DNA of 64,000 nt. It comes from Halosegnis marinus (GTDB lineage Archaea > Halobacteriota > Halobacteria > Halobacteriales > Haloarculaceae). The notes beneath the pieces are model-generated. The model was not told where the DNA came from. It was given only the letters and a program-made list of their open reading frames with translations, and searched no databases. Position numbers and translations under genes: made by a program. Below are positions 25,771 to 54,909 of the stretch, piece by piece. The stretch is from contig NZ_CP119802.1 in the NCBI RefSeq assembly GCF_029338355.1, forward strand, positions 620,001-684,000, given 5' to 3'. Numbering within the stretch: position 1 is the stretch's first letter; each line of letters begins with the position of its first letter.

Positions 25771-27996
25771 ATGAACGAGGTTCAACTTGAGGTGGCGAAG
25801 GCGTACCCGAACGACTCGGGTCGCGGCATCGCCCGCCTCGACCCGGACACGCTTCTGCACCTGAAGCTGTCGCCGGGCGACATCATCGAGATAGAGGGCG
25901 CGGACACCACCGCGGCGAAGGTGTGGCGCGCGGACCGGCAGGACTGGAACACGGACACCGTCCGCATCGACGGCTTCACGCGGCAGAACGCCGACGTCGG
26001 CATCGGCGAGCGCGTCACCATCCGCAAGGCCGAGGCGACGAAGGCCGAGAAGCTCGTGCTCGCGCCGCCGGAGGAGGCGTCCGTGCAGTTCGGCTCCGAC
26101 GCCGCCGGCATGGTGAAGCGCCAGATACTGAAGCGCCCCGTCGTCGAGCACGACATCGTCCCCGTGATGTCCTCGACGAACCACCCCTTCATGCGGTCGC
26201 CGGGACAGGCGATTCCGCTCATCGCCGTCGAAACCGAGCCCGACGGCGTCTGTCTCGTCACCGAGGACACCGAGGTGGAGCTGCGCGAGGAGCCCATCTC
26301 CGGGTTCGAGAAGACGGGCGGCGGCATCACCTACGAGGACATCGGCGGCCTCTCCGACGAGATACAGCGCGTCCGGGAGATGGTCGAACTCCCGATGAAA
26401 CACCCGCAGATATTCAAGAAGCTCGGCATCGAGCCGCCGCAGGGTGTCCTCCTCCACGGTCCGCCCGGCACGGGGAAGACGCTGCTGGCGAAGGCCGTCG
26501 CCAACGAGACGTCCGCGAGCTTCTTCTCCATCGCGGGCCCGGAAATCATCTCGAAGTACTACGGCGAGTCCGAACAGCAGCTCCGGGAGATATTCGAGGA
26601 CGCCACCGAGGAGTCGCCCTCCATCATCTTCATCGACGAACTCGACTCCATCGCGCCGAAACGCGAGGACGTCACCGGCGAGGTTGAGCGGCGCGTCGTC
26701 GCCCAGCTCCTGACGATGATGGACGGGCTCGAATCGCGCGGACAGGTCATCGTCATCGCGGCGACGAACCGCGTCGACTCGGTGGACCCCGCGCTCCGGC
26801 GGCCGGGCCGGTTCGACCGCGAGATAGAGATCGGCGTCCCGGACGAGACCGGGCGCAAGGAGATACTCCAGATACACACCCGCGGGATGCCGCTGTCGGA
26901 CGACGTGAGCCTCGACCACCTCGCCGACGAGACGCACGGCTTCGTCGGCGCGGACATCGAGTCGCTGACGAAGGAGTCCGCGATGAAGGCGCTCCGCCGG
27001 TACCTCCCCGAGATAGACCTCGACGAGGAGGACATCCCGCCGAGCCTCATCGACCGGATGATAATCAAGCGACAGGACTTCCGCGGCGCGCTCAACGAGG
27101 TCAGCCCCTCGGCGATGCGGGAGGTGCTCGTCGAGCTGCCGAAGATGTCGTGGGACGACGTGGGCGGGCTGGACGACGCGAAGGGGCAGGTGCAGGAGGC
27201 CGTCGAGTGGCCGCTCACCTCGCCCGAGAAGTTCGACCGCTTCGGTATCGAGCCGCCAAGCGGCGTTCTCCTCTACGGGCCGCCCGGCACCGGCAAGACG
27301 CTGATGGCGAAGGCCGTCGCCAACGAGACGAACGCGAACTTCATCTCCGTCCGGGGGCCGCAGCTCCTCTCGAAGTGGGTCGGCGAGTCGGAGAAGGCCA
27401 TCCGCCAGACGTTCCGCAAGGCCCGGCAGGTGGCCCCGACGGTCATCTTCTTCGACGAGCTGGACTCGCTCGCGCCCGGCCGCGGCGGCGACGTCGGCTC
27501 GAACGTGAGCGAGCGCGTCGTCAACCAACTGCTGACCGAACTCGACGGCCTGGAGGAGATGGGCGACGTGATGGTCATCGGCGCGACGAACCGCCCGGAC
27601 ATGATCGACCCGGCGCTCATCCGCTCGGGCCGGTTCGACCGGCTGGTGATGATCGGCGAACCCGGCATCGAGGGCCGCGAGCAGATACTCCACATCCACA
27701 CCGAGGGGATGCCGCTGTCGCCGGACGTGAGCCTCCGCGAACTCGCGGAGATAACCGACGGCTACGTCGGCTCCGACCTCGAGTCCATCGCGCGCGAGGC
27801 CGCCATCGAGGCGCTGCGCGAGGACGACGACGCCGACCACGTCGAGATGCGCCACTTCCGGCAGGCGCTGGAGAGCGTCCGCCCGACCATCAACGAGGAC
27901 ATCCGCGACTACTACGAGGGCATCGAGGAGCAGTTCAAGGGCGGCTCCTCCGGCATCGACCGGACCACCGGCTCCGGGAAGATCGGCTTCCAGTAA
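25771..27996 (+). CDS. CDC48/VCP-like AAA ATPase
   Basis: This 741-residue protein is an archaeal Cdc48 (VAT) homologue, a hexameric unfoldase that feeds substrates to the proteasome. It has an N domain (residues 1-190) and two AAA modules. The D1 Walker [18 protein letters not shown] is near residue 230, with [12 protein letters not shown]. The D2 Walker [18 protein letters not shown] is near residue 502, with [11 protein letters not shown]. Arg-finger regions ([26 protein letters not shown]) are intact in both. The C terminus ends [20 protein letters not shown], without the HbYX proteasome-docking motif. A T-rich stretch follows the stop. Confidence 0.96.
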
Positions 27997-28024: not shown

Positions 28025-29508
28025 TCAGTACCGTACGTTCCGGTCCACGACGGCCACGTCCGCGTCGAGGTCGTCCAGTCGCTCGAACGTCGGCGGCGAG
28101 AGCAGCCGCGAGGCGGCCGAGCGGTCGCGCGACGCCCCCATGAACACGAGGTCGAAGTGGGGCGCGGCCCGCTCCAGGAACGGCTCTATCTCCAGCCGGG
28201 AGACGCGCGTCTCCACGCCCCCCCGGACACGTCTCCGCGAGGTCGGCGAGCATCGACTCGGCGCGCCGCCGGTCGCCGCTCGGCCCGATACAGGTGGCGA
28301 CCGTGACGCCCCCCCGGTTCCGCGAGGCGGACGGCGAACTCCAGCATCGCGTGGGCCACGTCGCTGGCGCGCCGCACGGGGACGAGCACGGTCGGCCACG
28401 CCTCGCGGTCGGTCGAGCGGTGCGCGAGCACGTCCGTGTCGCCGCGGAACAGTTCGGCGACGAACGGCGTCACCGCGCCGTCGGCGGACTCGTAGCGCGC
28501 GGCTATCAGGTCGCAGTTCGTCTCGCGGGCGGCCCGCAGCGCGACGCCCGCGGGCGAGTCGCCGCTGGCGACGACCACCTCGCAGGTCGCGTCGGTGCGG
28601 GCCTCGACGCGGGCGGCGACCCCCTCCATCCGGGCGGCGCTCGGCGCGGCGACCCGGCGCTCGGCCCGGTCGTCGTCCGCGTCGGGGGCGGGCGCGGCGC
28701 GGGCGCTCGACGCCTCCCCGGCGAGGAGTTCCCGCTCGGCCGTGGCCAGGGCCGCCGTCTCGACGGTGTCGAGCAGGACCACGGTGCCCGTCCCGCCCGC
28801 GGCCGCGAGCGCTCCCGCGAGCAGCGCCGTCGCCCCGTCGGCGGCGTCGCGCATCGGGACGAGGACCCGACGGCCCCCCTCCGTCGAGCGGTAGAGGATG
28901 TCCGCGCGCCGCTCGTAGACGTTGTCGCGCCACAGCACGAACGCGCTCGCCACGGCGACGCTCGCGAGCGCGGTGAACAGGACGTACAGGCCGAGCGATT
29001 CGAGGTAGCCCGACCCGGTCGTCGGGACGACCAGCGCGAGCAGGGCCGTCGAGAACGCCGCCGGCTCCTCGACGGCGAGCGCCCACGTCGCCGCACCCGT
29101 GAGCAGGACGGCGAGGCCGGCCGCGAGCGGCGAGACGCGGTCGAGCACCCCGGCGGTGGGCGCGACCAGCCCAGTCGCGACGGCAGTCATCTCCGCCGCC
29201 GCGCCGCACAGCGCGCCGGTCGTCAGCCCGCCGACGAAGGTGCGCGGGTCGGCGTACCGGCCCTCCGGGTCCGAGAACAGCGTGAACGTCCCCGACGCGA
29301 TGGGCGGGAACAGGACGAACGGGAGCAGGGCGACGGCGTTCGAGACGGCCGTCACGGCGGCGACGAGGACGGGCACCGCGACGAGGCCGGTGAGGTGGAC
29401 GAGGTTGCGCGTCGTCTCCAGCCACGCGCGGAACTCGGCGAGTTCGCGCCGCTCGACCCGCCGGACGCGGGCGAGCGCGGCGCGCCAGCGGTCGCGGAGC
29501 CCCGGCAT
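28025..29508 (-). pseudogene. HPP-family membrane protein with two UspA domains, interrupted by two +1 frameshifts
   Basis: Conceptually joined, this is a 493-residue protein. An N-terminal HPP-type membrane domain of about five helices (LLPFVLFPPIASGTFTLFSD near residue 62) leads into a first universal-stress-type domain from about residue 213 (RRVLVPMRDAADGATALL) and a second from about 375 (TVLVPVRRASDVAHAMLEF). The frame is broken at two places, 28309-28315 and 28218-28224. Each is a run of seven C on the plus strand in the identical minus-strand context CCGGGGGGGCGT. Removing one G at each restores a clean frame: first VTVATCIGPSGDRRRAESM, then VETRVSRLEIEPFLERAAPH through to VVDRNVRY. 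As written, translation stops at 28186. This may be a real lesion, a homopolymer sequencing error, or slippage. Confidence 0.8.
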
Positions 29509-29640: not shown

Positions 29641-29949
29641 ATGTCCGACTCCGAGTACGCGCTGTTGGCACGGTTCGAGGCGAACGAGGGGAAGGAGGAG
29701 GCCCTGGCCGGCTTCCTCACGGACGCGCTCTCGATGGCCCGCGAGGAGCCGGGGATGACGACGTGGTTCGCGCTCCGGTTCGACGAGTCGAGCTTCGGCA
29801 TCTTCGACACCTTCCCGGACCAGGCGGGCCGACAGGCCCACCTCGAAGGGGAGATAGCGGCCGCACTCATGGCCGACGAGGACGACCTCCTGGACGGCGA
29901 GCCGACCATCGAGGAGGTCGACGTGCTCGCCGCGATGCACTCAGGCTAG
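29641..29949 (+). CDS. Antibiotic-biosynthesis-monooxygenase (ABM)-like domain protein
   Basis: This 102-residue protein has the pattern of the dimeric alpha+beta ABM fold: YALLARFEANEGKEEALAGF, EEPGMTTWFALRFDESSFGIFDTF, then QAGRQAHLEGEIAAAL. Members include small cofactor-free oxygenases and proteins of unknown function, and no substrate can be given. GGGATTGATACG lies about 30 bases before the ATG. The 3' end overlaps the convergent small gene at 29941 by nine bases. Confidence 0.75.
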   Translation: MSDSEYALLARFEANEGKEEALAGFLTDALSMAREEPGMTTWFALRFDESSFGIFDTFPDQAGRQAHLEGEIAAALMADEDDLLDGEPTIEEVDVLAAMHSG

Positions 29950-54817: not shown

Positions 54818-54909
54818 CTCCGCTTTCCGTTCGCTCACGACGGGTGCGGCCGTCGCGGGGGGGGGCGGTCGGCCAAGACTTAACGCGGTTCGCCTCCCCG
54901 GTTCGACAG

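What the first reader, a model, noticed from the sequence alone, without database searches (positions are those of the whole stretch)
28218..28315. Two identical G7 frameshift sites in one HPP/UspA gene
The membrane stress protein gene is out of frame twice, 91 bases apart, and each time at the same 12-base context CCGGGGGGGCGT. Deleting a single G in each tract gives perfect UspA-like coding before, between and after the sites. Two independent random mutations at the same motif in one gene are unlikely. Alternatives are a systematic homopolymer sequencing error, slippage-based phase variation, or RNA polymerase slippage that makes a mix of products.
Basis: seen in the sequence. Interest (0 to 1): 0.6.

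Follow-up and report, generated by a model that had tools for sequence, protein, structure and literature searches.

The report
Probable G-run errors in stress gene
A membrane stress-protein gene of a salt-loving archaeon is written out of frame at two runs of seven G, and because several unrelated and well-conserved genes of the same assembly are broken in the same way, often in close pairs, this is most likely leftover sequencing error rather than biology.

Summary
The gene on the minus strand (29508 to 28025) leaves frame at two G7 tracts, 28309-28315 and 28218-28224. Both lie in CCGGGGGGGCGT, a 12-mer found nowhere else in the genome. Each tract is one base too long; same-genus orthologues read straight through, and the own sequence stays orthologue-like before, between and after the sites. 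It is not unique. Of 99 G7 tracts checked across the genome, 6 break frame, all by +1, in 4 genes: this gene twice, an HTH_10 regulator twice (235 bp apart), mutS1, and a methyltransferase. Two more breaks turned up: htpX, about 580 bp from the mutS tract, and ksgA, near a contig start. These genes are otherwise pristine; the breaks cluster, are nearly all single-G insertions, and none was found in a further 240 kb. Residual homopolymer consensus error fits best (0.75). Genuine recent slippage, perhaps in a strain with a broken mutS1, is the main rival (0.18). Phase variation and slippage-based decoding have no positive support: no relative read has the tracts, a product needs both to slip, and the Gly and Pro tRNAs have ordinary anticodons. 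Raw reads would settle it.

The parts
28025..29508 (-). HPP-like membrane stress-protein gene, written in three successive frames
   Evidence: Frames read; proximal part 100% coding and aligned to orthologues in 25 other genomes; TM_HPP 25.1 bits, below its cut-off
28309..28315 (-). G7 tract, site 1: frame steps by one base (one G more than keeps frame)
   Evidence: L002 and L003 read through here without a G run
28225..28308 (-). stretch between the tracts, coding in the second frame (28 aa compared, 86% and 82% identical to L002 and L003)
28218..28224 (-). G7 tract, site 2: frame steps by one base again
   Evidence: orthologues
28028..28217 (-). C-terminal stretch coding in the third frame (63 aa, 78% and 75% identical to L002 and L003)
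28186..28188 (-). first stop codon of the gene's starting frame as written

Best explanation
The two frame steps are most likely residual homopolymer errors of the assembled consensus: true runs of six G written as seven in a stretch that was poorly polished, in an otherwise normal HPP-like gene. Shown: both tracts break frame, the gene is otherwise orthologue-like, and several other genes of the assembly carry the same lesion in spatial clusters. Inferred: that the DNA itself has six G, and that local read depth or quality is the common cause.
For: (1) Six of 99 G7 tracts examined break frame, all by one base too many, in four otherwise clean genes. (2) They cluster: two of the six-tract set form pairs within 600 bp, permutation P = 1.1e-4; a further break in htpX lies about 580 bp from the mutS1 tract in a divergent neighbour gene. 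(3) The broken genes include conserved ones: the mutS1 orthologue has an open frame of 890-898 aa in the five same-genus genomes against 798 here, and the methyltransferase is found in 14 of 16 genomes. (4) A ksgA break of opposite sign lies near the start of contig 1. (5) No other convincing break in 240 kb sampled outside the window. (6) All pieces remain as conserved as the proximal part. (7) Precedents: 205 residual indels, nearly all in G or C homopolymers, in a QV > 50 long-read assembly of a 73% G+C genome (PMC4832174, passages); single-base poly-C/poly-G differences from a haloarchaeal reference judged likely sequencing errors (PMC11834397, passages).
Against: No reads were available. 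69 of 99 G7 tracts lie inside continuous coding segments and 12 six-G copies of the motif stand, so the error would have to be sparse and local. All 5 G-type G7 breaks share one codon phase, P = 0.002 against in-frame G6 tracts and 0.045 against in-frame G7 tracts, which a pure sequencing error would not predict. Local G+C is not extreme at two of the four places.
Confidence: 0.75

Rival explanations
1. Genuine, very recent +1 slippage mutations. The strain, perhaps a mutator because its mutS1 is itself broken at a G7 tract, has gained single G's in several runs; the HPP gene is a fresh pseudogene and its second hit was free once the first had occurred.
For: mutS1 is broken at a G7 tract. The HPP gene looks dispensable: it and its neighbour are absent from 3 of 5 same-genus genomes. 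mutSL deletion raises the mutation rate in Haloferax (PMC9997560 and PMC7776575, passages).
Against: No other decay in any of the genes. All six G7 changes are insertions, while haloarchaeal mutation-accumulation indels are deletion-biased, and mutS/mutL loss gave no hypermutability in Halobacterium (PMC9997560, passages). The mutS/htpX pair crosses a gene boundary. A second mutS-like gene is open here.
Confidence: 0.18
2. Slippage-based decoding: seven G is real, and RNA polymerase or ribosome slippage over the G runs restores the frame often enough to make full-length protein.
For: All downstream parts stay orthologue-like. 5 of 5 G-type G7 breaks share one codon phase. [quoted passage not shown]
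Against: No relative read has a tract of six or more at either site. Two slips in series would be needed. The Gly (ccc, tcc, gcc) and Pro (tgg, ggg) tRNAs have ordinary three-base anticodons. Efficient slippage would harm the many genes with in-frame G7 tracts.
Confidence: 0.03
3. Phase variation: the two G tracts change length reversibly and switch the C-terminal part of a membrane protein on and off.
For: A membrane protein with G tracts at frame breaks, the general setting of slipped-strand phase variation.
Against: Tracts of only seven; not conserved in relatives; two tracts must be right at once; the other genes hit (mutS1, htpX, methyltransferase, ksgA) are not surface genes.
Confidence: 0.03

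Closest known systems
Residual G/C homopolymer indels in assemblies of high-G+C genomes (Streptomyces albus SM254, PMC4832174; passages read)
   Same: Single-base indels confined mostly to G or C runs in a genome above 70% G+C, breaking otherwise intact genes
   Different: There the errors were shown and corrected with short reads; here no reads were available. All six G7 cases here are insertions and they come in close pairs
Poly-C/poly-G differences between the Halobacterium reference and re-sequenced strains (PMC11834397; passages read)
   Same: Haloarchaeon; single bases in G or C tracts; [quoted passage not shown]
   Different: Their cases were found by re-sequencing; these are found by frame and orthologue comparison only
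Singleton frame transitions in the GeneTack survey (PMC3711429; passages read)
   Same: A frame transition not shared by homologues; the authors expect one class of singletons to be sequencing errors rather than genuine indels
   Different: Here two transitions lie in one gene at the same motif, and a second gene of the genome shows the same pattern

Membership tests
Residual homopolymer consensus error | Break sits in a homopolymer while the gene is otherwise intact and conserved | tested here: met
   6 of 6 G7 breaks in four genes, orthologues continuous for HPP, HTH_10, mutS1 and methyltransferase
Residual homopolymer consensus error | Same lesion in unrelated, conserved genes of the assembly | tested here: met
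   mutS1, HTH_10, methyltransferase, htpX, ksgA
Residual homopolymer consensus error | Reads disagree with the consensus at the tract | not testable with these tools
   no reads held
Slipped-strand phase variation | Tract conserved or variable in length among strains and relatives | tested here: not met
   no run of six or more near either site in the relatives read; G runs of at most five. Strains of the same species were not available
Programmed frameshifting or transcriptional slippage | Frame transition conserved in homologues | tested here: not met
   none of the 25 other genomes with a match shows a break; open frames continue through
+1 suppression by a four-base-anticodon tRNA | A Gly or Pro tRNA gene with an enlarged anticodon | tested here: not met
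   44 Rfam tRNA matches; all Gly and Pro genes found have three-base anticodons. tRNAs missed by Rfam, such as some with introns, were not examined
Mutator strain | Loss of a mismatch-repair gene in the DNA | tested here: inconclusive
   mutS1 is out of frame as written, but by the same kind of lesion that is in doubt
HPP transmembrane family (PF04982) | Match over the Pfam cut-off | tested here: not met
   25.1 bits against 27.2; Usp 15.1 bits against 24; a distant resemblance only

The most novel reading that the evidence does not exclude
The seven-G tracts are real, and this archaeon lives with +1 frame steps at xxG-GGG-GGG in several conserved genes (mutS1, a regulator, the HPP gene, with htpX at a shorter run) because polymerase or ribosome slippage restores the frame. 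That would be a GC-rich archaeal counterpart of the poly(A) slippage rescue known from insect endosymbionts (recalled).
Probability: 0.03. Interest if true: 0.75.

Novelty: not a real feature. Interest (0 to 1): 0.12.

Why it matters
If it is error, the practical point is that mutS1, htpX, ksgA and three other genes of this assembly should not be called pseudogenes, and that close pairs of +1 frame steps at G runs mark poorly polished stretches. If the tracts are real, the same list makes either a natural mutator strain or slippage-based frame rescue in a GC-rich archaeon directly testable.

Tried and rejected
Context-specific systematic misreading of CCG6CGT: rejected, because 12 six-G copies exist; of the 8 examined, 3 are in frame and 5 were not scorable. 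General inflation of G7: rejected, 102 G7 against 1014 G6, and 54 of 99 scored in the same frame on both sides. Local extreme G+C as the cause: not supported across loci; the HPP and methyltransferase spots are at about the 92nd percentile, mutS/htpX and HTH_10 are near or below the middle. A suppressor tRNA: not found. A named record of the organism: none in genome contigs (only a Halapricum relative) or in plasmids.

False alarms dropped: L079 (gene boundary), L178 and L182 (low-complexity Thr/Pro stretches), L187 (a candidate; the translations show no continuous protein in two frames, so I read it as a gene boundary). Candidates whose upstream frame stops within about 50 bases were read as ordinary gene ends without further check. 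The first frame classifier was trained into the antisense shadow and was discarded; the retrained one was used. One search failed on an orientation assumption and one search repeated it. In one search both HPP tracts and one HTH_10 tract fell in 'one side not coding' because the middle frames are short; they were recognised. The control genome G004 (30 of its 41 G7 tracts examined) gave 11 in frame, 18 unclear and 1 shift; that shift was dropped by my filter as a gene boundary (stop within 25 bases) without reading it. The G5 break in htpX was found because I was reading next to mutS, so it is not an unbiased find. The regular expression returned nothing and was replaced. The context test (A before and C after the run, 3 of 6 against 4 of 93, P = 0.004) is post hoc.

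Full report
What is there. The window comes from a haloarchaeon-like genome of 2.81 Mb in two contigs (window = G000:C1:620001-684000). On the minus strand between an AAA ATPase gene (25771-27996) and a 102-aa gene (29641-29949) lies one gene, 29508 to 28025, which as written runs in three frames. The steps fall at two G7 tracts, 28309-28315 and 28218-28224, both in CCGGGGGGGCGT. The 12-mer occurs nowhere else in the genome. Read piece by piece, the protein matches same-genus orthologues: against L002, 69% and 60% for the two halves of the proximal part, 86% for the 28 aa between the sites and 78% for the 63 aa after them; against L003, 70%, 62%, 82% and 75%. Of 39 genomes searched, 26 have a match, 25 besides the own one, and none has a stop inside the match.

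Why the motif is the same twice. With six G both sites read Pro-Gly-Gly-Val. L002 and L003 have Pro-Gly-Gly-Val at site 1, written without a G run, and Glu-Phe-Asp-Val at site 2. The shared 12-mer therefore reflects the same four residues in the same codons; what needs explaining is the extra G in each.

Is this gene alone? I trained a coding-frame model on the window and nearby loci and examined 99 distinct G7 tracts of the 102 in the genome. In one search, 69 lie inside a continuous coding segment, 18 at a segment edge and 12 outside coding. In one search, which asks for a clear frame on both sides, 54 are in the same frame, 41 have one side not scorable and 4 shift; one of the 4 (L079) is a gene boundary. 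Together with the sites recognised, six tracts break frame, all by one base too many: the HPP gene twice; an HTH_10 regulator twice, 235 bp apart, with a continuous orthologue in L233; mutS1, open frame 798 against 890-898 in the five same-genus genomes, identified by PRK05399 and TIGR01070; and a methyltransferase with open relatives. Two further breaks were seen: htpX at a G5 run about 580 bp from the mutS tract (Pfam M48), and ksgA about 700 bases from the start of contig 1, with the opposite sign and no long run (RrnaAD on both sides). The orthologues of htpX and ksgA in relatives were not fetched; those two breaks rest on frame and Pfam evidence.

How general is it? In the window plus twelve further 20-kb stretches (304 kb) the only convincing frame break is the HPP gene (other candidates were low complexity or gene ends). 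In the own sequence given, no true break was found at 185 G6 tracts (2 shifts, one a low-complexity gene in L178, the other removed by the stop filter) and, apart from htpX, none at 890 G5 tracts (6 shifts; of the two that passed the stop filter one is htpX, and the L041 candidate, with a stop 32 bases on, was read as a gene end); 90 and 349 of these tracts were unclear. The four places with eight or more G lie between genes by the segment calls. In the control genome G004, 30 of 41 G7 tracts gave 11 in frame, 18 unclear and one shift dropped as a boundary.

Clustering. The six G7 breaks include two pairs closer than 600 bp, though only 7 such neighbour pairs exist among the 99 tract positions used; random choice of six gives two or more such pairs with P = 1.1e-4 (200,000 draws). 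The HPP pair was given to me, so a fairer figure is the HTH_10 pair alone: by hand, 6 x (4 x 3)/(97 x 96), roughly 0.008. The mutS/htpX pair spans two divergent genes, so death of one gene does not explain it. Local G+C does not explain it either.

Mechanism. A sparse set of single-base insertions in G runs, in close pairs, in otherwise pristine genes, plus a break near a contig end, is what an incompletely polished consensus looks like. A 73% G+C Streptomyces assembly polished to QV > 50 still held 205 indels, nearly all in G or C homopolymers (PMC4832174, passages). [quoted passage not shown] I give this 0.75. That the DNA has six G is an inference; no reads were available, and the sequencing platform of this genome is unknown to me.

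Main rival. The mutS1 break would fit a mutator strain whose G runs are slipping. Against it: insertions only at G7, while haloarchaeal mutation-accumulation lines are deletion-biased; and mutS/mutL loss raised mutation in Haloferax but not in Halobacterium (PMC9997560, passages). A second mutS-like gene is open here. In favour: the HPP gene looks dispensable, missing with its neighbour from 3 of 5 same-genus genomes, one of them only 67% complete.

Functional readings. Phase variation and slippage-based expression lack support: none of the relatives read has the tracts, two events in series would be needed, and the tRNA set (44 Rfam matches) has ordinary Gly and Pro anticodons. One residue stays unexplained: all 5 G-type G7 breaks sit at one codon phase (xxG GGG GGG), P = 0.002 against in-frame G6 tracts and 0.045 against in-frame G7 tracts, post hoc. 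The methyltransferase tract is C-type on the coding strand and differs in phase.

Literature coverage. Four searches; papers seen by passages only: PMC4832174, PMC9997560, PMC7776575, PMC11834397, PMC3711429, and PMC3812077 (with its abstract). I make no claim that this locus is absent from print.

Noticed in passing
G000:C1:1361194-1361200 (L175 4695-4701): mutS1 is out of frame by one base at a G7 tract after about 93 codons, while the rest of the gene is clean; the neighbouring htpX is out of frame at a G5 run about 580 bp away.
   Followed up: partly
G000:C1:1913246-1913489 (L176): An HTH_10 regulator gene shows the same double pattern as the HPP gene: two G7 tracts, 235 bp apart, each stepping the frame by one.
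   Followed up: partly
L033 about 267 (G000:C1 about 703): ksgA (RrnaAD) is out of frame close to the start of contig 1, with the opposite sign and no long homopolymer.
   Followed up: partly
window 54857-54865: A G9 run, one of only four places with eight or more G in the genome, lies between two divergent genes.
   Followed up: no
L281 2151-2224: ARAGORN calls a tRNA of unknown type with a four-base anticodon (cgcg); it is not among the 44 Rfam tRNA matches and is probably a GC-rich false positive.
   Followed up: no
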